A stretch of 64,000 nucleotides of DNA from Cyanobium sp. WAJ14-Wanaka (GTDB taxonomy: Bacteria; Cyanobacteriota; Cyanobacteriia; PCC-6307; Cyanobiaceae), in assembly GCF_024345375.1 (NCBI RefSeq), contig NZ_JAGQAZ010000001.1:310001-374000 (forward strand). The letters run 5' to 3'. The translations under genes were made by a program, and so were the position numbers. Shown one piece after another: positions 2,880 through 39,897 of this stretch; the first letter of the stretch is position 1; each line of letters starts with the position of its first letter. Below the pieces are notes generated by a model, which was not told the origin of the DNA, did not search any database, and saw only the letters and a program-made list of their open reading frames with translations.

Positions 2880-4016
2880 ATGACAGCCCCTGGGCCAGCA
2901 GTTCTTCGGGAGGGGCCCCATGGCCCGCTTGGGGTTTTGGTTTGCGGCCATGGCAGCCGCAACAAGTTGGCGGTGGCCGAATTTGCCCAGCTAGCCCAGC
3001 AGCTCCAGGCCCTTTTGCCCCAGGTGCCGGTGGAATACGGCTACCTGGAATTCGCCCGCCCGATCCTGCGCGATGGCCTGGAGGCCCTGAGGGCCCGGGG
3101 GGTGCGCCATGTGCTGGCGGTGCCGGCGATGCTGTTTGCGGCGGGCCATGCCAAAAACGACATCCCCTCCGTTCTCAATACCTACGCCGCCGAAACGGGT
3201 CTAAAGATCGACTACGGCAGGGAGTTGGGGGTGGACCTCAAGATGATCCAGGCGGCCGGTGCCCGCATTCGCGAGTGCCTTGACCGTGAAGGGAGTGATC
3301 GTGAAGAGAGTGATCACAAATCTCCGGCTTCAGATCTGAGCGACACCCTGTTGGTGGTGGTGGGCCGGGGCTCTTCCGATCCCGATGCCAATTCCAATGT
3401 CGCCAAGGTGACGCGGATGCTGGTGGAGGGCTTTGGTTTTGGCTGGGGCGAAACCGTCTATTCGGGCGTCACCTTTCCCCTGGTGGAACCCGGCCTGCGC
3501 CATGTGGTGAAGCTCGGCTATCGGCGGATTGTGGTGTTCCCCTACTTCCTCTTCTCAGGGGTGTTGGTGAGCAGGATTTTTCAGCACACCGACCTGGTGG
3601 CCGCCGATCACCCGCAGGTCAGCTTCCTGAAGGCCAGCTACCTGGCCGATCACCCCCTGGTGCTCGACACCTTTGTGGAGCGGGTGGAGGAGGTGGTTCG
3701 GGGTGACACGAACATGAATTGTTCGCTTTGCAAATACCGGGCCCAGGTGCTCGGCTTTGAAACCGAGGTGGGGGCCCCTCAGCAAAGCCACCACCACCAT
3801 GTGGAAGGCCTCACCGATGGCTGTGACCTCTGTGAGCGCGAGTGCACGGGCGCCTGCCAGAGCGATGGGGCGCCGATCTCGGCTGGCCACGATCACCCGC
3901 ACGACCACGACCATCCCCATGACCATGGGCATTCCCATGATCACGACCACCATCACCCCACCTATCCCCACGCGGACCATCCACTAGGCCCCCGCACCCT
4001 GCGCAAGGGGGCCTAG
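2880..4016 (+). CDS. cbiX: CbiX/SirB-type sirohydrochlorin chelatase with His-rich tail
   Basis: A 378-residue chelatase expected to insert Co2+ (or Fe2+) into sirohydrochlorin for B12 or siroheme synthesis. It contains two homologous CbiX domains: the first with LVCGHGSRNKLAVAEF (residues 20-35) and FAAGHAKNDIPSV, the second with LLVVVGRGSSDPDANSN and VFPYFLFSGVL. After these come two cysteine groups, NCSLCKYRAQVLGFE and CDLCERECTGACQ, consistent with the Fe-S or metal site of long CbiX proteins. The last ~40 residues are repeated His-Asp, typical of metal buffering. Domains one and two are joined by an insert near residues 140-155 made by a 15-bp tandem duplication. The B12-dependent reductase at 43-46 kb is a likely consumer of the pathway. 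Confidence 0.88.
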   Translation: MTAPGPAVLREGPHGPLGVLVCGHGSRNKLAVAEFAQLAQQLQALLPQVPVEYGYLEFARPILRDGLEALRARGVRHVLAVPAMLFAAGHAKNDIPSVLNTYAAETGLKIDYGRELGVDLKMIQAAGARIRECLDREGSDREESDHKSPASDLSDTLLVVVGRGSSDPDANSNVAKVTRMLVEGFGFGWGETVYSGVTFPLVEPGLRHVVKLGYRRIVVFPYFLFSGVLVSRIFQHTDLVAADHPQVSFLKASYLADHPLVLDTFVERVEEVVRGDTNMNCSLCKYRAQVLGFETEVGAPQQSHHHHVEGLTDGCDLCERECTGACQSDGAPISAGHDHPHDHDHPHDHGHSHDHDHHHPTYPHADHPLGPRTLRKGA

Positions 4017-4143
4017 GTCCTCAAATCTTTAGACATCTGGTCGGTTTTGATTGGCTCAGATGTCTCTTCTCGGGCCGGGTTCCATGGGACTGGCCCCCAT
4101 AACTCCTGCTTATCGTTTTGCGCTTTACCCATCTCGCCGGAAG

Positions 4144-4178
4144 TTTTCCCCAGCCCAGCCAGCTCTTTTCCACAGGCG
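4144..4178 (+). promoter_or_regulatory. DnaA-box-like tandem element upstream of DUF2811 copy B
   Basis: TTTTCCCCA at 4144-4152 and TTTTCCACAGGCG at 4166-4178 start 22 bp apart and point toward the DUF2811 gene at 4434. A CGCCGG block precedes the pair here, as it does at the other copy (621-675). The gene-free stretch 4017-4433 holds this element and the inverted repeat at 4342-4374. I see no gene in it. Confidence 0.6.
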
Positions 4179-4341
4179 AGCCATTTGGGGGCTCGGTTCT
4201 GGGGGTATTCGGGGGATTGCGAGCAGACCTTGGCAACTGTCCAAGTGACCCTTGACAGGGACCAGGGAATTGCACTCCAGCCCACCCTGTGTTTTCCGCT
4301 TCCCCAGCAAGTTGCCCCATATACGGCCTGTCTCGCCCGAG

Positions 4342-4374
4342 AAAGCGATGGGATTGCATCGCTTGCATCGCTTT
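4342..4374. repeat. 9-bp inverted repeat with overlapping direct repeat
   Basis: AAAGCGATG (4342-4350) and CATCGCTTT (4366-4374) form a perfect 9-bp inverted repeat with a 15-bp loop. TTGCATCGC is also repeated head-to-tail at its right side. It sits 60-92 bp before the DUF2811 copy B start and could be an operator or leader hairpin. It is not followed by a T run, so it is not an obvious terminator. Confidence 0.5.
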
Positions 4375-4433
4375 GACTTCCGCTGCCTACCTATGGCCTA
4401 CTGGGACCCAAAAGAGCCCAACGGCAATTCAGG

Positions 4434-4652
4434 ATGACTTTGGAGAGGGGACTGTCAAATGCTTCGATCAGCCTGGAGGCTGAGGTGCCTGAGGTGCTCT
4501 ACCAAGGCATGCGCGAGTACATCCGCAGCCATCCCGATTGGGATCAATACCGGCTGGTGACCTCTGCCCTCGCCAACTTCCTATTTCAGAACGGCTGCCA
4601 GGAACCAGGGGTCTCCCGCCAATACCTCAAGGGCTTATTCCAGGAGCCATAG
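4434..4652 (+). CDS. DUF2811 family small protein, copy B
   Basis: A 72-residue protein starting MTLERGLSNASISLEAEVPEV. It shares with the copy at 138-383 the blocks YQGMREYIRSHP, WDQYRLV, NFLFQNGC and YLKGLFQ. This is the normal compact size of the cyanobacterial DUF2811 family, whose function is unknown. There is no transmembrane segment or known catalytic motif. The gene is followed by a strong stem-loop at 4667-4694 and stands alone in its transcription unit, with a 417-bp upstream region that carries the DnaA-box-like pair. Confidence 0.82.
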   Translation: MTLERGLSNASISLEAEVPEVLYQGMREYIRSHPDWDQYRLVTSALANFLFQNGCQEPGVSRQYLKGLFQEP

Positions 4653-4666
4653 CCAACTAGGCAAAT

Positions 4667-4694
4667 AAAAAAGCGGGAGTGCCAACCCCCGCTT
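4667..4694. terminator. bidirectional intrinsic terminator
   Basis: AAGCGGG (4671-4677) pairs with CCCGCTT (4688-4694). The six A residues at 4667-4672 give a T run on the minus strand, so termination is strongest for the leftward GMC gene that ends at 4824. On the plus strand the stem ends in only TTT, a weaker end for DUF2811 copy B. Confidence 0.75.
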
Positions 4695-4823
4695 TGGTCT
4701 CCCTTGCCCGACCCTTTGGAAAGGTCGCCCCCCCATTGTGCGGAACCAGGCAAGGCCAAACGGTGACCATTGACACAAGATGGAGGCTTGATCAGCAGCT
4801 CAAGACTTCCCTGTGGGGAGCCC

Positions 4824-6494
4824 CTAGTGCTGTTGGTCGTTTTTGAGTCTTTGGGCCGCCGCTTCACAGGCCCTCCAGGTAATCGCCATTTCGGTGAGGG
4901 TGGGGCTCTGCCAGGCCGCAGTTGGCCAGCAGGCCCCATCCACCACCAGCAGGTTTTTGGCGCCCCAGCACTGGTTGAGCCCATTCACCACACCACCTTC
5001 TGCGCTCGCTGCCATGCGGGCACCCCCTAGCTCGTGGATGTAGTAACCCGGCGGTGGTGCCCCAGGGCTGACCGCCAGGCTGGTTTTGATCCAGGGTTCG
5101 AGCAGCGGCAATACAAACAATTCCTCGATCGGCCGGATGCTGCCCCCCGCCGCCTGCACCACTGCCTCCATGCGGCGGTGCATGTGCTCGAGCATCAGTT
5201 TTTCGTTTGGGCCCCACCGGCAACTGATGTGGGCGATCGGGATACCCCAACGGTCCCGCCGCTCGGGATGCAGCGTTACCCGGTTGTCGGCATCGGCGAG
5301 CACCTCTCCATGGCCAATTAGGAAACCCACCGCTTCCCCACGGCGGCGTTGCAGCAGGGCGGGCGGGTCAAAGCGCTGGATGGCGCTCCAGATGCCATAG
5401 CCCCGCAGAAAGCCACTGGTTTGCTCCCCAGCTTTTGCCCCGTCTAGATTGACGGTATTGGGAATGAAGCAGCTGCCCGCCCCCGACAATTCATGGGGCC
5501 GCTCCGGTGCCGCGATCCCCGGGATTGAGAAGAAGCGGCTGGTCGAGATGTGGTCGAGCAGGTGGCGGCCCAGGCTGCCCGAGGGGTCAATCAGCCCGCC
5601 CGACTGGACCCCTTCGCTGGAGTGCAGCAGGATCCGCAGGGTTTCGATGGTGGAGGCACAGAGCACCACCAGGGGGGCCTCGAGCTGTTGGCGCGCGCCG
5701 CTCTGGCCATCTATCACCACCACCCCCCTAGCCCTGCTCTGGCAGCTAGCCAGCAGCACATGGCTCACCACACTGTTGCTGCGCACCGTCGTGCGGCCAG
5801 TGGCCAGGGCCCTTGCCAGCGTTACGCCGGGGCTGCTGGAGCGGGGCCAGGGATTGGCCCTACTGGGCGCCTCCAGGTTGAAGCCGCGCGAGTGGATCAG
5901 GGGCAGGCCCAACTCGCCCTCGATGGCGGTTTTGAGGTGTTTTTCGCCGGGGGTGAAGGGCAGGGGGGCCTGAAATTGGCCATCGGGCAGCTGGGAGAGG
6001 CCATCGCAGTGGCCGTGCACCTGCAGTAGCCGCTCGAGTCGGTCGTAGTAGCTGGATAGATCGGCGCTGGCGATTGGCCAACTGGGGCCATGGCCATCCC
6101 GCTCGCCGGCCTTGAATTCGTGGTCGGAAAGCCGCAGGGTGATGCCACCCCAGGTCAGGCTCTTACCCCCCACCTGCCGGCCCCGGCTCCAGAGGTAGGG
6201 GGCATCTACGGGGGTTGAGTAGGGGTTCTCCCGTTCATCGACAAACAGATCGGGGTTGTGCTTCCAGAAACCAGGGTGATGGCATTGCCGGGCCTGTTTG
6301 CCGCTGCTGATGTTGCGCAACCTCCGCAGGCTGTTGAGCGGTTCGGAGCCAAAGGCCTGGGCCGCCGCCAGGGATGGTCCGGCCTCCAGCACCAACACCC
6401 GCAGCCCGGCCTCAGCCAGCACCATGGCCGCCACCCCGCCAGTGGCGCCTGAGCCCACCACGATTGCGTCGGCATGGGTGGCCGGTTTTGCCAT
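4824..6494 (-). CDS. GMC family FAD-dependent oxidoreductase
   Basis: A 556-residue flavoprotein of the glucose-methanol-choline family. It has the N-terminal dinucleotide-binding motif AIVVGSGATGGVAAMVLAEAG (residues 10-30, broken by no gap), the LEAGPS strand end, a central RGRQVGGKSLTWGGI block (the GMC signature region) and the C-terminal VVDGACWPTAAWQSPT segment, which aligns with the FAD-contacting end of the family. No Tat or Sec signal is visible. The oxidised substrate cannot be told; many bacterial members act on alcohols, sugars or carotenoid-like compounds. The ATG at 6494 follows directly on the T run of the tRNA terminator with no ribosome-binding site. No alternative start exists upstream of the FAD motif. 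Confidence 0.85.
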   Translation of the reverse strand: MAKPATHADAIVVGSGATGGVAAMVLAEAGLRVLVLEAGPSLAAAQAFGSEPLNSLRRLRNISSGKQARQCHHPGFWKHNPDLFVDERENPYSTPVDAPYLWSRGRQVGGKSLTWGGITLRLSDHEFKAGERDGHGPSWPIASADLSSYYDRLERLLQVHGHCDGLSQLPDGQFQAPLPFTPGEKHLKTAIEGELGLPLIHSRGFNLEAPSRANPWPRSSSPGVTLARALATGRTTVRSNSVVSHVLLASCQSRARGVVVIDGQSGARQQLEAPLVVLCASTIETLRILLHSSEGVQSGGLIDPSGSLGRHLLDHISTSRFFSIPGIAAPERPHELSGAGSCFIPNTVNLDGAKAGEQTSGFLRGYGIWSAIQRFDPPALLQRRRGEAVGFLIGHGEVLADADNRVTLHPERRDRWGIPIAHISCRWGPNEKLMLEHMHRRMEAVVQAAGGSIRPIEELFVLPLLEPWIKTSLAVSPGAPPPGYYIHELGGARMAASAEGGVVNGLNQCWGAKNLLVVDGACWPTAAWQSPTLTEMAITWRACEAAAQRLKNDQQH

Positions 6495-6529
6495 AAAACA
6501 AAAACCCCGACAGGGATCTGCCGGGGTTT
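6495..6529 (-). terminator. intrinsic terminator after tRNA-fMet
   Basis: On the minus strand a 12-bp stem (arms 6518-6529 and 6502-6513, one G-T wobble) with a 4-base loop is followed by TTTTTGTTTT. The stem begins 8 bp after the tRNA end, and the T tract runs into the ATG of the GMC oxidoreductase at 6494. Confidence 0.85.
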
Positions 6530-6537
6530 GGAAGAAG

Positions 6538-6614
<77 letters not shown>

Positions 6615-6631
6615 TCGACAAGTTCAGCTTA

Positions 6632-7603
6632 TCAGTCGAAGCGCAGCTCCCCGCGCACATCCAGGCGTAGGTGGGGCGCAGGTGCCAAATATTTGGCGCG
6701 CAGATCCTCCAGGGTCATGGGCGTAAGCCAGTCGAGCTGCTCCAGTAGGTGGAGCGCCACGGCATGTTTTGCCCGGGCCGAGCCGTCTTCAACCTTGATG
6801 GCCACCCCCATCCCCTCGCCAACCCGGCTGAGGCATTGGATTCCTTCGGCTCCCCCCTTGCTGAGCACCTGGCCGTGGCCGCTGCGCATCACTTTGGTGT
6901 CGAAGCGGCCCTCGCCAGCCACCAGTTCTGGGTGGGCAAGCATCGCCCTGCTCAGCCGCTCCAAATCGGCCTGGGCGCCAGCGCCCAGGTGGGCGTAGAG
7001 CAGGGCCATCTGGGCCAGTTGCAGCTGCAGGGTGGGGGCGCCGCAGTCGTCGCGGGCAGATACCAGTTCTTCGGGCGGTAGGCCCAGCATTTCTGCCACC
7101 CGTTTGAGGATTTCCTGCTGCAGGGGGTGATCTTTCTGCAAATAGCTTTCGCTGCTCCAGCCCATGCGCCGGCAGGTGGCCAAAAAGGCGGCGTGCTTGC
7201 CCGAGCAGTTGTGCTCTAGGGCGCTGCTGCCGCATTCGGGGATGGGGCACTGCAGTTGATCCGACTCCAGCTCCGCCCCCCAGAGCACCTTGAAGGCCTC
7301 CCGGGCATGCATGGCCGTGCCGGCGTGGGAGGCGCAGGCAATGGCCAGGCCCCGCTCACCGCATTTGCACTGGTCAGCTGCGCCACTGGCCACAAACACC
7401 GTGGCCTGAAATGGTTTCAACGCCGAGCGGACAAAACTGAGCTGTTGGGGATCGCCGGCCCTCATCAACACCCGGCCGCGGCCATCGCAGACCACCGCAT
7501 GCACCCGGTGGCGGGATTCGGCAATGCCATTGCGCAGTAGCCGCACCTCGAGGGGCGGATTGCTATTGCGGCTAGTACCCCCGAAATTGGTCGCCAGGCT
7601 CAT
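6632..7603 (-). CDS. asparaginase (L-asparaginase II family)
   Basis: A 323-residue enzyme predicted to hydrolyse L-asparagine to aspartate and ammonia. It belongs to the PF06089 family, which is unrelated to the AnsA/AnsB fold. Recognisable blocks are EVRLLRNGIAESRHRVHAVV at the N-terminus, SFVRSALKPFQA (residues 56-67), CASHAGTAMH near 90, EHNCSGKHAAFLATCR near 129, DDCGAPTLQLQL near 184 and EGMGVAIKVEDGSARAKH near 263. The length is normal for the family. It follows the CGLD27 gene by 15 bp in a leftward operon that begins at DUF3318, and precedes the initiator tRNA. Confidence 0.88.
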   Translation of the reverse strand: MSLATNFGGTSRNSNPPLEVRLLRNGIAESRHRVHAVVCDGRGRVLMRAGDPQQLSFVRSALKPFQATVFVASGAADQCKCGERGLAIACASHAGTAMHAREAFKVLWGAELESDQLQCPIPECGSSALEHNCSGKHAAFLATCRRMGWSSESYLQKDHPLQQEILKRVAEMLGLPPEELVSARDDCGAPTLQLQLAQMALLYAHLGAGAQADLERLSRAMLAHPELVAGEGRFDTKVMRSGHGQVLSKGGAEGIQCLSRVGEGMGVAIKVEDGSARAKHAVALHLLEQLDWLTPMTLEDLRAKYLAPAPHLRLDVRGELRFD

Positions 7604-12678: not shown

Positions 12679-13680
12679 TCACACCACCGTGAGCCTGCTC
12701 AGATCACCACTGAAACCAGTGATCTCAATGATTCCGTCGCTGCCGCCCTGGAATCCGGCCTGCCCATCATTTAGCGCCAGGAAGGTGCGGTTGTTGCTGC
12801 CAGCGCCGAGGCTGAAAGTCACTGCGTCGTTGGCGCTGAAGTTGCGGCCATTGAGCAAATTGCCCACTTCAGCCAAATCCAGGCTTGCCACCCGGCCCAA
12901 CTGGCTCACCTTGACTACCGCAGACCAACCATCGATCACATCGGTGCCAATCACCAAATCGGTGATGCGGTCGAAACCACTCAGCAGGCTGTCGCCCATG
13001 CCGAAAGCAAAGGTGTCGCTGCCAGCACCCCCGGTCAGGATGTCGCCGCCACCGAGGCCCCGCAGCAGGTCGTTACCGCCGCCGCCATTGAGATTATTGG
13101 CCAAGTTTGAACCGGTGATGCTGTCGGCATTTTCCGAGCCCACAACATCCTGAAAGCCCTTCACCACAAGGCTGGCGCTGCCCACAAAGGGAAGATTGTT
13201 GATGGTGAGCGATTCTTTGGAGAGGTCCACCGTCATTGTTGCGGTAGTGCCTGTGCTGCCATCGATAACATTGCGGCGATTGGGGTTGGCCTGGATCACC
13301 TCCACGTCGAAGCTGGCGATGGTGTCTGTGCCAAGGCCCCCGGATTTGCTGATAACGCCACCGCGGCTGAGGGTGATGTCGGCATTGAGGCCGGAGTAGT
13401 CGAGGGTGTCGATGCCGGCACCGCCACTAATTGAGTCGCTGCCTGCTGTTGCTAGCAAGCGATCGTTTCCATCCCCACCTGAGGAGTTATTGGAGCTGTT
13501 ATCGCCCACCAGCACGTCATTGCCGGCGCCGCCAAGCAGATTCAGCGGCAGGGGCCGGGGTGCGGGAGCGGGTGCTGGGCCTGGTGCTGGGCCTGGTGCT
13601 GGAGCTGGAGCAGGTGCTGGAGCTGCGCCGATAAGCGGAGCAACGATGGGAGGGCGTTCGGCCGAATTTGCTGGGGGCAT
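12679..13680 (-). CDS. RTX-repeat putative surface protein with bluetail C-terminal domain
   Basis: A 333-residue secreted or surface protein. Residues 1-45 are an Ala-Pro linker (repeated APAPGP) with no Sec signal. Nonapeptide RTX calcium-binding repeats follow in two blocks: LLGGAGNDVLVGD to SGGAGIDTLDYSG (residues 47-95), and NNLNGGGGNDLLRGLGGGDILTGGAGSD (195-222). The last 90 residues (VIGTDVIDGWSAVV to GFSGDLSRLTVV) match the picocyanobacterial 'bluetail' domain, which sits at the C-terminus of presumed type I secreted surface proteins. The protein is short for the class, and no T1SS genes are adjacent. Function is unknown; adhesion or S-layer-like roles are inferred for relatives. Confidence 0.83.
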   Translation of the reverse strand: MPPANSAERPPIVAPLIGAAPAPAPAPAPGPAPGPAPAPAPRPLPLNLLGGAGNDVLVGDNSSNNSSGGDGNDRLLATAGSDSISGGAGIDTLDYSGLNADITLSRGGVISKSGGLGTDTIASFDVEVIQANPNRRNVIDGSTGTTATMTVDLSKESLTINNLPFVGSASLVVKGFQDVVGSENADSITGSNLANNLNGGGGNDLLRGLGGGDILTGGAGSDTFAFGMGDSLLSGFDRITDLVIGTDVIDGWSAVVKVSQLGRVASLDLAEVGNLLNGRNFSANDAVTFSLGAGSNNRTFLALNDGQAGFQGGSDGIIEITGFSGDLSRLTVV

Positions 13681-13855
13681 GGGAAAGAGATTTCAAACTG
13701 CTTCGAACCAACTCTCCTGCATATATTTGTCTGAACTGTGACTAAGCCCTAGCAATTTGTGACTGGATCTGACTGGGGCCTGGTCATATTTGGCAATGAC
13801 TCCCCCATCTCCAGGCACAGTTCAGGCGCATTGCTCCCGGACATTGGTGGATGAA

Positions 13856-14281
13856 ATGAATCCCCATCCAATGGCAGTTTCCTTCTCTTCCCCAGGTTCT
13901 CTAGCACTTGGCCTTGTTCTGCTCACAGGTTTTGTTGGTACTCCGGGCCGTGCGCAAGAAACCACTAAAAATTTGAATACTGTTCCCGCAAGACTTGTGC
14001 CAGCAAAGGTGTTGCCGGAGCGAGCTCTATCCGAGCTGAAGGCCCTTGAACTTGAAAAATTGGCGAGCCTGCAGAAACTGAACCGTTTGGAAGAGGCTTG
14101 CATCAGTAGGGCCAGCAACCTGGAGGCACTCCACCAGTGCAGACGCGACGAGCACCAGGCCCACAGGGAACTGCGCAAGAATGTGGGTCAGAGGATGGCG
14201 GCGATCAGCCAGCGCTATGGGTTGCCATTGGCTAAGCCAAAACACGAATATGGTGGTTGCAAGGGCGAACCGCAGACTTGA
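13856..14281 (+). CDS. exported CX12C helical protein, cassette gene 1
   Basis: A 141-residue exported protein from the ATG at 13856; an in-frame ATG at 13790 would only add a hydrophilic leader. The signal peptide runs through SLALGLVLLTGFVGTPGRAQ and likely ends after GRA. The mature part is a long amphipathic helix rich in Leu, Glu and Lys. It contains a cysteine pair at residues 82 and 95 (C-ISRASNLEALHQ-C) followed by RRDEHQAHRELR. The same CX12C helix occurs in the last gene of this cassette (16353-16742), so the two are paralogues. It ends 9 bp before the response regulator. No known family recognised; the shape recalls periplasmic helical adaptors such as CpxP/Spy, but the LTxxQ motif is absent. 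Confidence 0.75.
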   Translation: MNPHPMAVSFSSPGSLALGLVLLTGFVGTPGRAQETTKNLNTVPARLVPAKVLPERALSELKALELEKLASLQKLNRLEEACISRASNLEALHQCRRDEHQAHRELRKNVGQRMAAISQRYGLPLAKPKHEYGGCKGEPQT

Positions 14282-14290
14282 TCAAAGCCC

Positions 14291-15016
14291 ATGGCTAAGC
14301 CCTTCAAGGTCTGGTTGGTAGACGACGATCCGGAGCTCAGGCAAATGCTGGGCTCCTATCTTTCTGACCATGGTTATGAAGTTCGCTGTTTTGAGACGGC
14401 TGAACTATTCCTAGTCCGTCTTGCGATTCAGCGGCCTGATCTGGTGGTGCTCGACGTGATGCTGCCCGGTCAGGATGGCCTCTCTTTGATGCGCCAGCTT
14501 CGGGGAGCCCAGGATGATCTGCCCGTTGTGATGTTGACCGCAAAGGGTGATCCGGTCGATCGCATTATTGGCCTTGAACAGGGGGCAGACGACTACCTGG
14601 CTAAACCATTTTTGCCCAGGGAACTAACGGCGCGGGTCGACTCGGTCCTGCGCCGCCATAGCCAGAGACCAGTGGGAGTGCCCTTGGAGGGGGAGGAGCC
14701 TGTGGTATTTGGTCAATGTGTGCTGAACCTCCATACCCGCACTCTGCAGAAAGGTGATTGTATTTTGGCTATTACTACTGGTGAATTTAGTCTGTTGATG
14801 GCTTTCGTTCAAAATGCCCATCGACCCTTGTCAAGACAAAGGTTGATTGATATTGCCAGGGGGCCTGCCAGCGAAACAGATCTGCGCAGTATGGATGTTC
14901 AGGTGTCCAGGCTAAGGAAGCTAATCGAGGCTGACCCACGTCGACCAAGATATATCCAGACGGTCTGGGGATTCGGCTATGTGTTTGTGCCTGAAGGAAA
15001 ACCAGCGGCCTGTTGA
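14291..15016 (+). CDS. OmpR-family response regulator
   Basis: A 241-residue DNA-binding response regulator. The receiver domain (residues 5-120) has the acidic pair D11-D12-D13, the phosphoacceptor D55 in LVVLDVMLPG, the conserved T in VMLTAKGD and the K in DDYLAKPF. The C-terminal half is a winged helix of the OmpR/PhoB type, ending in SMDVQVSRLRKLIEADPRRPRYIQTVWGFGYVF. It overlaps the histidine kinase by one base (TGATG at 15014-15018), so the pair is translationally coupled. Its position between two exported paralogues suggests that it controls envelope-related genes, possibly including this operon. Confidence 0.92.
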   Translation: MAKPFKVWLVDDDPELRQMLGSYLSDHGYEVRCFETAELFLVRLAIQRPDLVVLDVMLPGQDGLSLMRQLRGAQDDLPVVMLTAKGDPVDRIIGLEQGADDYLAKPFLPRELTARVDSVLRRHSQRPVGVPLEGEEPVVFGQCVLNLHTRTLQKGDCILAITTGEFSLLMAFVQNAHRPLSRQRLIDIARGPASETDLRSMDVQVSRLRKLIEADPRRPRYIQTVWGFGYVFVPEGKPAAC

Positions 15017-16350
15017 TGGCATTTCCTGTGCTTAACAAGGCATCGCTTTCTTTCCGCCTTGTTGGATTTTTTATGTTGTCTTGGTTGGGCAGTTTGTTGC
15101 TATTTCGCTCGGTTTTAGCTGCTAAAATTGAACAAAATCAGATTGGTCAGTCTGTAAATATTCTCGCACATAATATCAGCCTTAGTGAGCTTGCATTGGA
15201 GCGCTACCCGCCCGCTGCTGTTTCTAACCTTAATGGTTATCAGTTATTGGTGGACCAACTTCCCAGACAGGCTGGAAACAGTGATGGTGTATTGCTAAGG
15301 CAGCTATCAATTTTGAAGCCACTGCTGTGTGATCGGCTTGGCCATTGCCCGGAAATGGAGCCTGCCCTCAAGCCCGATAGGGGGATCTGGATTCACCTTG
15401 CTTCTCCTTTGGAGCCAGTGTGGCTTTTCTTTCCCCTGCCCTCCGCTCAATTTCTCAGCACCGATCCCCTGCTGCTTTCCCTTTCCCTTATCACCGGTAG
15501 CGTGATGGCTGGGGCAATGTTTTTATTCCTTGAGGTGCGTAGGCCATTGCGCCGATTGGAGCAGGCCATGGCCGAGGTGCGCAGCGGTGCCGACGGCTCA
15601 CCCGCTCCAGCAACTGGAGCCCTGGAAGTAAGGCAGTTGAGCCTCCATTTCAATTCCATGCTGTCCCGTATCCAGGCCAGTGAGAGGGAGCGACAGACGA
15701 TGCTGGCGGGTATAGCCCACGACTTGAATAGTCCGCTTACCCGCCTGAGGTTAAGGCTGCAGGGTGGTTCAGCACCAGGCGACTCGTTACTTTGCCTGGA
15801 TTCCCATGCCCAGCTAAAGCTGGGAGCAGATTTAGATGCCCTTGGGCGTATTACCCAGCAATTCCTTTTGTTCGCGGGATCAGGTAGCCGGGAAGGATTT
15901 GTGGAGGTTCCACTGCACCAACTGCTAGAGGAGCTATCTGCCCACTACGACGGCCAGGATTTGCGGCTGGAACTTGACGAAATCCAAGCCTTAGTGCAGC
16001 CGATAGCCCTCATCCGTGCCATTGGCAACCTTATCGACAACGCCCTCGAATATGGCGAAGCTCCATTGCTATTGCGCCTTATTTTGCTGAATCCGTATGC
16101 CTATGCGATCGAAGTGATTGATCGCGGCCCAGGCATTCCAGATCAGGAACTTGATTTGGCCGTTGAACCTTTTCAGCGCCTAGATCGCGCACGCAGGGGG
16201 GAGGGTCACTGCGGGCTCGGTTTGGCCATCGCCAAGAGGATTGCCCTGGTCCATGGGGGCGACCTCCTATTGAATCCCATCTCGGCAGCAGAGGGGGGTG
16301 GTCTTTGCGCATGTTTTTGGGGTAGCTGCCAGCCCCTGGAGCGGGCTTAG
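15016..16350 (+). CDS. EnvZ-like sensor histidine kinase with periplasmic cysteine pair
   Basis: A 444-residue membrane kinase. TM1 is at about residues 13-33, a periplasmic domain follows to about 145, TM2 is at 150-172, then a HAMP-like linker (RRPLRRLEQAMAEVRSG). The phosphoacceptor H235 is in GIAHDLNSPLTRLRLRLQ; NS replaces the usual RT after the DL. The N box (AIGNLIDNALEYG), G1 (VIDRGPGIPD) and G2 (GLGLAIAKR) are intact. The sensor domain contains C105 and C111 (CX5C). The TTG at 15013 could add one residue, but ATG at 15016 fits the TGATG coupling. The gene ends 2 bp before the second exported CX12C protein. Confidence 0.9.
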   Translation: MAFPVLNKASLSFRLVGFFMLSWLGSLLLFRSVLAAKIEQNQIGQSVNILAHNISLSELALERYPPAAVSNLNGYQLLVDQLPRQAGNSDGVLLRQLSILKPLLCDRLGHCPEMEPALKPDRGIWIHLASPLEPVWLFFPLPSAQFLSTDPLLLSLSLITGSVMAGAMFLFLEVRRPLRRLEQAMAEVRSGADGSPAPATGALEVRQLSLHFNSMLSRIQASERERQTMLAGIAHDLNSPLTRLRLRLQGGSAPGDSLLCLDSHAQLKLGADLDALGRITQQFLLFAGSGSREGFVEVPLHQLLEELSAHYDGQDLRLELDEIQALVQPIALIRAIGNLIDNALEYGEAPLLLRLILLNPYAYAIEVIDRGPGIPDQELDLAVEPFQRLDRARRGEGHCGLGLAIAKRIALVHGGDLLLNPISAAEGGGLCACFWGSCQPLERA

Positions 16351-16352
16351 CG

Positions 16353-16742
16353 ATGGGCATTCGATTGCCAAATTGTTGCCGTCCGGCCCTGGCCGGATCA
16401 TTGATATTGGCTTCCTTAATTGCACCTTTGCCAGGTCTCTGCCAGGACCAGAGGGCGTTCCAGGTTCTCAGGGAACTTGAACAACAAAAGTTGCTTGAGG
16501 CTCTTCAGCTGGTCCGTATCTCCTTTAGCTGTGTGGATGCGGCCCGCAACATCCACGCCCTACAGGAATGCCATCGGCAAGAGAGGGATCGGGAATGGGA
16601 GCAACGGGAGCGCTTTCGTCGGCAGATTGGGGCTGCCAGAGCCCGCTTTGGCCTGGGGAGGCCTAGGGAAGAACCTCCCCCCAGGCCTGGCTATGGCCCG
16701 CCCCCTGAGGGGCGAGAGGGCCGCCGGCCCCAGCCTTGGTGA
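16353..16742 (+). CDS. exported CX12C helical protein, cassette gene 4
   Basis: A 129-residue exported protein whose start is 2 bp after the kinase stop. The signal peptide (about residues 1-30) includes LAGSLILASLIAPLPGLCQ; a Cys near its end could make it a lipoprotein, but the LPGLC box is imperfect. The mature helix resembles cassette gene 1, with C60 and C73 in the same CX12C spacing. Shared positions are C-(V/I)-x-x-A-x-N-(I/L)-x-A-L-x-x-C-x-R-x-E, then (R)-x-G-(L) at the end of the helix. The C-terminus is a proline- and glycine-rich tail (PPPRPGYGPPPEG). No known family recognised. Confidence 0.75.
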   Translation: MGIRLPNCCRPALAGSLILASLIAPLPGLCQDQRAFQVLRELEQQKLLEALQLVRISFSCVDAARNIHALQECHRQERDREWEQRERFRRQIGAARARFGLGRPREEPPPRPGYGPPPEGREGRRPQPW

Positions 16743-39168: not shown

Positions 39169-39897
39169 GTGACCGGATCTGAGAGGCCGCCCCTGGGCTG
39201 GATCGGTCTCGGTGCCCTGGGGGCGCCGATGGCCTCGAACCTTTTGGCGGCAGGCTTTCCGTTAACTGTGTACAACCGCACCACGGGCCCCGAGCAACCC
39301 CTGGTGGCAAAGGGGGCGCTGCTGGCGACCAGTCCAGCGGCAACTTCAGCGACGGCCGAGCTGTTCTGTCTCTGCGTGAGCGACGACGCGGCAGCTGAGG
39401 CGGTGCTGTTTTCTCACCAGAGCGATCCAGAGCGAGCTCCTGCCAGCGCTGGCTTACGCCCCGGCAGCCTGGTTATCGACTTCTCCACAATCGTCCCGGC
39501 CACTAGCCAATCGCTGGCGATGCGGCTGGCCGATCTGGGGGTGGCCAATTTGGATGCCCCGGTGACCGGTGGCACGGAAGGGGCCCGGGCCGGCAACCTG
39601 TCTGTGCTGGTGGGTGGTGACGCGTCCGATCTGGAGCGGGCCCGTCCCGTGCTCGAGGTTGTGGGCGCTCGTGTAAGCCACCTGGGGCCGGTGGGGGCAG
39701 GTCAGCAGGCCAAGGCGGTCAACCAGGTGCTTGTTGCCGGTAGTTACGCCGCCGTTGCAGAGGCCATGGCCCTGGGCCAGCGCTTGGCGCAGCCCGTGAG
39801 CGCACTGGTGGCCTCCCTAGAAGACGAGCTGCTGGCAGCAGGCCACGGCAATGACGACGTTTCGGCCCTAGCCCGCTGGTTCAGCAGGCCCAGCTAA
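39169..39897 (+). pseudogene. beta-hydroxyacid dehydrogenase family protein with internal deletion
   Basis: A 242-residue frame beginning at GTG with the NAD(P) motif IGLGALGAPMASNLLAAGF, then FSTIVPATSQ, DAPVTGGTEGARAGNLSVLVGG and GAGQQAKAVNQVLVAG, the segment with the catalytic lysine of 3-hydroxyisobutyrate-dehydrogenase-like enzymes. The usual following region (about 45 residues with GSWALENR and the HKDL helix) is absent: AQPVSALVASLEDEL runs straight into the family's C-terminal AAGHGNDDVSALARWF. The protein is about 50 residues shorter than the usual 290, so the dimer and substrate side is incomplete. The frame itself is intact, so it may still be expressed. Confidence 0.68.

What the first reader, a model, noticed from the sequence alone, without database searches (positions are those of the whole stretch)
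13856..16742. Two-component system enclosed by two paralogous exported CX12C proteins
Seen: four genes in one direction with gaps of 9, -1 and 2 bp: exported helical protein, OmpR-type regulator, EnvZ-like kinase, second exported helical protein. The outer two share a CX12C helix (C82/C95 and C60/C73) with matching A, N, AL, R and E positions. The kinase's periplasmic domain has its own pair, C105/C111. Inference: the exported proteins are periplasmic partners or signal modulators of the kinase, possibly thiol-based, comparable in position but not in sequence to CpxP with CpxA. I know no described family for the flanking proteins.
Basis: partly seen in the sequence, partly recalled or inferred. 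Interest (0 to 1): 0.72.

Follow-up and report, generated by a model that had tools for sequence, protein, structure and literature searches.

The report
Periplasmic hairpin proteins tied to kinase
Two small exported proteins flanking a bacterial sensor kinase belong to an undescribed protein family found only in tiny oceanic and lake cyanobacteria, where its genes co-occur with and share promoter signals with that kinase system, so they are probably its dedicated periplasmic partners.

Summary
Four co-directional genes (13856-16742) encode exported protein A, an OmpR-type regulator, an EnvZ-like kinase and exported protein B; gaps are 9, -1 and 2 bp. A and B are paralogues (BLASTP 5e-11) of an undescribed family, found only in Cyanobiaceae. 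All 47 aligned members keep C-x12-C, which AlphaFold2 places at the turn of a helical hairpin, not along one helix. The kinase's periplasmic C105/C111 is invariant in 46 orthologues. In 300 Cyanobiaceae genomes family and kinase co-occur (both 142, family only 15, kinase only 7, neither 136), although only 63 of 150 listed family genes adjoin the kinase. Most unlinked copies occupy the slot that elsewhere holds regulator-kinase-family (murG-P260-[RR-HK]-family-pgk). Many family genes and RR-HK operons, linked or not, share an upstream OmpR-like repeat (GTCAnATCyGGTCA); the window operon has it at 13759-13775. Best reading: the family is the dedicated target of this two-component system and probably its periplasmic feedback partner, working like CpxP or ZraP without detectable homology to them. 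Binding, feedback sign and thiol chemistry are not shown. The A-RR-HK-B enclosure is a rare local duplication (window plus one relative).

The parts
13759..13775 (-). OmpR-like direct-repeat site (plus-strand GTGACTGGATCTGACTG; minus-strand AGTCAGATCCAGTCA, two GTCA half-sites 10 bp apart), 81 bp upstream of gene A
   Evidence: Only zero-mismatch match of the pattern GTGACYGGATCYGACTG in the 2.14 Mb genome; same element and orientation upstream of RR genes in other genera
13856..14281 (+). Protein A, exported, CX12C hairpin family member (141 aa; C82, C95)
14291..15016 (+). OmpR-type response regulator (receiver plus winged helix)
   Evidence: PF00072 and PF00486; NF007005 OmpR 301 bits, below cut-off 331
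15016..16350 (+). EnvZ-like sensor histidine kinase (444 aa) with periplasmic sensor domain, HAMP, HisKA and HATPase_c; codons of C105 at 15328-15330 and of C111 at 15346-15348
   Evidence: sensor cysteines invariant in 46/46 orthologues and all 41 rows of A3; model m079be9012707
16353..16742 (+). Protein B, exported, CX12C hairpin family member (129 aa; C60, C73)
   Evidence: AlphaFold2 model m6d1b8362d276

Best explanation
The locus is a picocyanobacterial OmpR/EnvZ-like two-component system together with its dedicated small periplasmic proteins. A and B are exported, then fold as alpha-helical hairpins whose turn is probably stapled by the C-x12-C disulfide. The regulator binds an OmpR-type direct repeat upstream of its own operon and upstream of the family's genes elsewhere, so the hairpin protein is made when the kinase is active; in the periplasm it most likely contacts the kinase's small disulfide-bearing sensor domain and tunes it (negative feedback or client titration, as CpxP does with CpxA). 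Shown by computation: family, cysteine conservation, co-occurrence, ancestral slot, shared promoter element. Inferred: that this regulator is what binds the element, that the hairpin binds the kinase, the sign of feedback, disulfide formation, and the stimulus, which is unknown. In the window's lineage the family gene has been duplicated to both ends of the operon.
For: A and B homologous and part of a family with two invariant cysteines, found in Cyanobiaceae only. Genome co-occurrence with the kinase: both 142, family only 15, kinase only 7, neither 136 of 300. Shared slot murG-P260-RR-HK-family-pgk; unlinked copies mostly sit in the same slot without RR-HK. Upstream element GTCRGATCYGGTCA with at most 2 mismatches in 45% of RR upstreams, 41% of unlinked and 55% of linked family genes against about 1% in shuffles, in fixed orientation and mostly 86-104 bp from the start codon; further GTCA half-sites downstream in many. 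Of 10 exact genome-wide matches of GTCRSATCYGGTCAY in 16 genomes, 9 lie just upstream of family genes. Family distances follow sensor-domain distances beyond kinase core and RR (partial r 0.23, none of 2000 permutations as high) but not kinase core (partial r -0.02). Precedent: CpxP is among the most highly expressed Cpx regulon members and inhibits CpxA through its periplasmic domain (PMC6737893).
Against: More than half of listed members do not adjoin the kinase. Six genomes of at least 99% completeness (G089, G131, G234, G242, G143, G214) keep the family but lack kinase and regulator, and G049, G080 and G253 show kinase and regulator without a detected family member. The co-occurrence count is not corrected for phylogeny. 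The sensor cysteines are also conserved in kinases of genomes without a detected family member. No complex was modelled and nothing shows binding.
Confidence: 0.55

Rival explanations
1. The hairpin proteins are effectors only: periplasmic stress or chaperone-like proteins whose genes are the main output of the two-component system but which do not touch the kinase (like Spy rather than CpxP).
For: Retained in near-complete genomes that lost kinase and regulator; unlinked in most marine genera; promoter evidence fits an output gene equally well; repeated tandem duplication (L049, L051, L062, G062) fits dosage of an effector.
Against: Tight co-occurrence and shared slot; co-variation with the sensor domain beyond the kinase core and the regulator; three of the four tested family-only loci lack a recognisable site (L120, L121, L124; L123 keeps it), so expression there is under other control.
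Confidence: 0.32
2. Thiol-redox sensing: the hairpin's cysteine pair and the kinase's C105/C111 exchange disulfides, so the module reads periplasmic redox state.
For: Both pairs are invariant and both lie on exported segments.
Against: Invariant pairs are what structural disulfides look like; C105-C111 joins the end of a helix to just before a strand, and C60-C73 spans a hairpin turn, both good structural positions; the kinase pair is kept where no family member is found.
Confidence: 0.08
3. A gene-neighbourhood accident: unrelated small exported proteins that happen to lie near a kinase.
For: Unlinked members in many genera; the enclosure itself is seen in only two genomes.
Against: Homology, 142/300 co-occurrence with 22 discordant genomes, shared ancestral slot, shared promoter element.
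Confidence: 0.05

Closest known systems
CpxP with CpxA-CpxR (Cpx envelope stress response)
   Same: Small periplasmic helical protein, gene next to an OmpR-family regulator and its membrane kinase, probably under that regulator's control; CpxP damps its kinase through the periplasmic domain (PMC6737893).
   Different: No detectable homology (profile comparison with cyanobacterial LTXXQ proteins 9.6% over 22 columns); hairpin with an invariant C-x12-C; gene downstream of the kinase rather than divergent; kinase is EnvZ-like, not CpxA.
ZraP with ZraS-ZraR
   Same: Periplasmic helical-hairpin protein that represses its own two-component system (title of Appia-Ayme 2012, quoted); ZraP 3lay appears in the fold search.
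   Different: Fold match not significant (E 2.6); no sequence relation found; ZraSR is not an OmpR/EnvZ-type pair (own knowledge).
QseG with QseE
   Same: Accessory envelope protein encoded beside its kinase and binding it directly (PMC12691602).
   Different: QseG is an outer-membrane lipoprotein and an activator; the family here looks like soluble signal-peptidase I products.
EnvZ-OmpR; Synechococcus WH8102 SYNW0807-SYNW0808
   Same: The pair is EnvZ/OmpR-like by family models, and a WH8102 EnvZ/OmpR-like pair has been proposed for osmoregulation by computation only (PMC2874817).
   Different: Sensor domain has an invariant cysteine pair and no PDB sequence match; both proteins score below the EnvZ and OmpR equivalog cut-offs; no small periplasmic partner has been described for it in the papers found. 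Identity with SYNW0807-0808 was not tested directly.

Membership tests
LTXXQ / CpxP / Spy superfamily (PF07813, PF13801) | Match to the family model over its curated cut-off | tested here: not met
   Best single-member E 0.06 (PF07813) and 0.046 (PF13801), one member each of 36; NCBIfam CpxP 0.055, one member
LTXXQ / CpxP / Spy superfamily (PF07813, PF13801) | Homology by profile-profile comparison | tested here: not met
   hhalign against 8 LTXXQ proteins from cyanobacterial genomes: probability 9.6%, 22 columns
LTXXQ / CpxP / Spy superfamily (PF07813, PF13801) | Spy/CpxP/ZraP fold | tested here: inconclusive
   Hairpin model; no PDB match at E <= 0.001; ZraP 3lay at E 2.6, TMt 0.56
CpxP-like feedback partner (functional class) | Gene controlled by the cognate regulator | tested here: inconclusive
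   Shared OmpR-like repeat upstream of family genes and RR operons, rare elsewhere; binding by the regulator not shown
CpxP-like feedback partner (functional class) | Binds and inhibits the cognate kinase | not testable with these tools
   Only indirect: partial co-variation with the sensor domain
EnvZ equivalog | NCBIfam NF007004 at or above cut-off | tested here: not met
   159.5 bits against a cut-off of 415
OmpR equivalog | NCBIfam NF007005 at or above cut-off | tested here: not met
   301.1 bits against a cut-off of 331, by far the best model
CX12C hairpin family (this report) | Both cysteines, hairpin profile, signal peptide | tested here: met
   A and B in the 47-member profile with both cysteines kept; hydrophobic N-terminal segments seen in the sequences (by inspection; no signal-peptide predictor was available)

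The most novel reading that the evidence does not exclude
A family found only in Cyanobiaceae forms a closed signalling module: an OmpR/EnvZ-like pair whose regulon is almost nothing but itself and its cysteine-stapled periplasmic hairpin partners, with A and B acting as a divergent modulator pair on one kinase and the invariant cysteine pairs on both sides passing redox information between partner and sensor.
Probability: 0.12. Interest if true: 0.75.

Novelty: new variant of a known kind. Interest (0 to 1): 0.55.

Why it matters
It gives an undescribed protein family a testable partner, promoter element and evolutionary history in some of the most abundant phototrophs. Cyanobiaceae have few two-component systems, and this EnvZ/OmpR-like pair has been assigned to osmoregulation only by analogy; a dedicated periplasmic partner and a very narrow predicted regulon point instead to an envelope-sensing circuit that can be tested with one deletion and one binding assay. 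It would also be another independent origin of CpxP-style accessory control.

Tried and rejected
(1) Membership of LTXXQ/CpxP/Spy, suggested by LTPxQ at the start of many domains: not supported. (2) Fold match in the PDB: only generic hairpins, none at E <= 0.001. (3) That gene A is the displaced pgk-locus copy: the tree puts A with L032:7830 inside the same 13-row clade as B (support 100/99), so A is a duplicate within the relocated system; the window genome's pgk-P260 slot has no family member. (4) That the promoter element is merely the first codons of a divergent dehydrogenase (ATGACCGGATC = MTGS): that gene overlaps the site in 10 loci, but the element also occurs where it is absent (L053, L066, L069, L113, L118), in HK-family gaps and upstream of RR. 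(5) search for related loci with the diverse family alignment failed for lack of conserved stretches; the kinase alignment was used instead. (6) Sensor-domain profile against PDB: nothing. (8) Literature: only a computational osmoregulation model and an expression table that name a WH8102 EnvZ-like kinase.

Full report
What is in the window. The four genes are as described: A 13856-14281, an OmpR-type regulator (RR) 14291-15016, an EnvZ-like kinase (HK) 15016-16350 and B 16353-16742, with gaps of 9, -1 and 2 bp. RR carries a receiver and a winged-helix domain; HK carries HAMP, HisKA and HATPase_c. The best NCBIfam models are OmpR (301 bits) and EnvZ (160 bits), each below its equivalog cut-off. 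A and B have no Pfam or NCBIfam model over cut-off. They align with each other at 32% identity over 76 residues, E 5e-11. They are the only two members found in this 2.14 Mb genome.

The family. Searching 300 Cyanobiaceae genomes with B and iterating a profile gave 47 members in the loci fetched, all with C-x12-C. Members are about 120-220 aa with a hydrophobic N-terminal segment and mostly a variable, Gly/Pro-rich tail. A profile search finds the family in 157 of 300 Cyanobiaceae genomes. In 291 genomes drawn from the phylum, matches outside Cyanobiaceae are limited to one at E 0.009 with two stops in the frame, that is, noise. AlphaFold2 for B gives a two-helix hairpin, residues 29-63 and 67-99, block pLDDT 91-98. 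The two cysteines therefore flank the turn and could staple it; I could not inspect side-chain geometry, so the disulfide is an inference. No PDB fold matches significantly, and profile comparison with LTXXQ proteins from cyanobacterial genomes is negative.

The kinase. Its orthologues (46 aligned) keep C105 and C111 without exception while neighbouring residues vary (also invariant in the 41-row alignment). The model of the kinase shows an alpha/beta sensor domain between two long helices; its sequence has no PDB relative. The pair is conserved also in kinases from genomes with no detected family member (L104-L107), which argues for a structural disulfide.

Linkage of family and kinase. In the 300 genomes, family and kinase occur together in 142, family alone in 15, kinase alone in 7, neither in 136 (Fisher p 8e-58, not corrected for phylogeny, and many of the 'neither' genomes are small Prochlorococcus-like ones). 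Within the window's own genus the pattern is 9 both, 2 family only, 0 kinase only, 5 neither. Of 150 listed family genes, 63 lie within 4 kb of the kinase (57 genomes); 75 genomes have listed copies only elsewhere. The non-neighbouring copies are not random: most lie between P260 (an uncharacterised exported protein, next to murG) and pgk, and in several genera that same slot reads murG - P260 - RR - HK - family - pgk. Those genomes have RR-HK at another place. A further set, including the window, has RR-HK-family at a new locus; several of these keep an extra family copy at pgk (for example G047: L033 and L119), while the window genome has none there. In the tree, A and B fall in one well-supported clade of 13 made up of these relocated copies; A pairs with the upstream copy of G082. 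Only 77 columns support that tree. So the enclosure in the window is a lineage-level duplication inside a relocated operon, not the general form of the system.

Promoter element. Reading the upstream regions showed a repeated element, GTCAnATCyGGTCA, two GTCA half-sites 10 bp apart, upstream of unlinked family genes and, in reverse orientation, upstream of RR-HK. With the consensus GTCRGATCYGGTCA, matches with at most 2 mismatches occur in 45% of 42 RR upstreams, 41% of 34 unlinked and 55% of 33 linked family upstreams, against 0.6-1% in dinucleotide shuffles. In family genes the best sites are nearly all on the forward strand and mostly 86-104 bp from the start codon, even in short HK-family gaps. 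Many carry additional GTCA half-sites about 31-32 and 42 bp downstream, the helical phasing expected of OmpR-family arrays. The consensus was drawn from these same upstream regions, so the independent points are genome-wide rarity and the match in the window: GTGACYGGATCYGACTG has one exact match in the window's genome, at 13759-13775, 81 bp before A. The two degenerate positions were set wide enough to take the window's bases; the strict RR consensus would give 2 mismatches there. In 16 genomes, 9 of 10 exact matches of GTCRSATCYGGTCAY lie just upstream of family genes; one-mismatch matches exceed the backward control less clearly, so a broader regulon cannot be read from them. A divergent dehydrogenase gene whose start codon overlaps the site in 10 loci could mimic conservation there, but the element is present where that gene is absent. 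Among four tested loci from genomes without RR and HK, three no longer show the site (L120, L121, L124) and one does (L123).

Co-variation. Over 38 genomes, family distances correlate with sensor-domain distances after removing kinase-core and RR distances (partial r 0.23; none of 2000 permutations as high), while the partial correlation with the kinase core is -0.02. This is suggestive, not proof: saturation, shared linkage and the choice among paralogues can distort it.

Mechanism. The best-supported account is a two-component system that controls its own operon and a small periplasmic hairpin protein, which most likely acts back on the kinase. [quoted passage not shown] QseG shows that an accessory envelope protein can bind a kinase directly (PMC12691602). 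Co-occurrence, slot and promoter element are shown by computation; regulator binding, kinase binding, feedback sign, disulfides and stimulus are inferred or unknown. The main rival, effector without kinase contact, is not excluded, since the family outlives the kinase in six near-complete genomes.

Relation to what is known. The pair resembles the WH8102 EnvZ/OmpR-like pair SYNW0807-0808, proposed for osmoregulation by computation only (PMC2874817); WH7803 and many named Synechococcus, Cyanobium and Vulcanococcus strains encode orthologues of the kinase. I found no paper describing the hairpin family. It works like CpxP or ZraP but failed the tests for membership in that superfamily, so I rate it a new variant of a known kind.

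Noticed in passing
window 39169-39185: Second-best match of the promoter element in the window (2 mismatches) sits on the GTG start of a 3-hydroxyisobutyrate-dehydrogenase-like gene; relatives of that gene lie divergently beside the hairpin-family gene or the RR gene at the pgk locus of other genomes, with the ATG overlapping the element in several. It may be part of the regulon or a relic.
   Followed up: partly
L045:4715-5518 and equivalents; own genome L155:7513-8514: P260, a conserved protein of about 260 aa with an apparent signal peptide and no Pfam match, lies between murG and the hairpin gene (or RR-HK) in most Cyanobiaceae loci examined.
   Followed up: partly
window 12679-13680, minus strand: RTX-type calcium-binding repeat protein with a Pro/Ala-repeat N-terminal segment, transcribed divergently from gene A.
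   Followed up: no
L065, L067, L110: In one genus (g30) the hairpin gene sits in a different place, between a rhodanese-like gene and an aminopeptidase-like gene, far from both pgk and the kinase, yet keeps a GTCA half-site array upstream.
   Followed up: partly
L103 (G062), 3695-7100: Up to four tandem hairpin-family copies between the kinase and pgk; repeated local duplication also in L049, L051 and L062.
   Followed up: partly
L048 (G111), 3070-3624: Kinase gene reduced to a fragment next to an intact hairpin-family gene; could be decay or an assembly or frameshift error in a fragmented genome.
   Followed up: no
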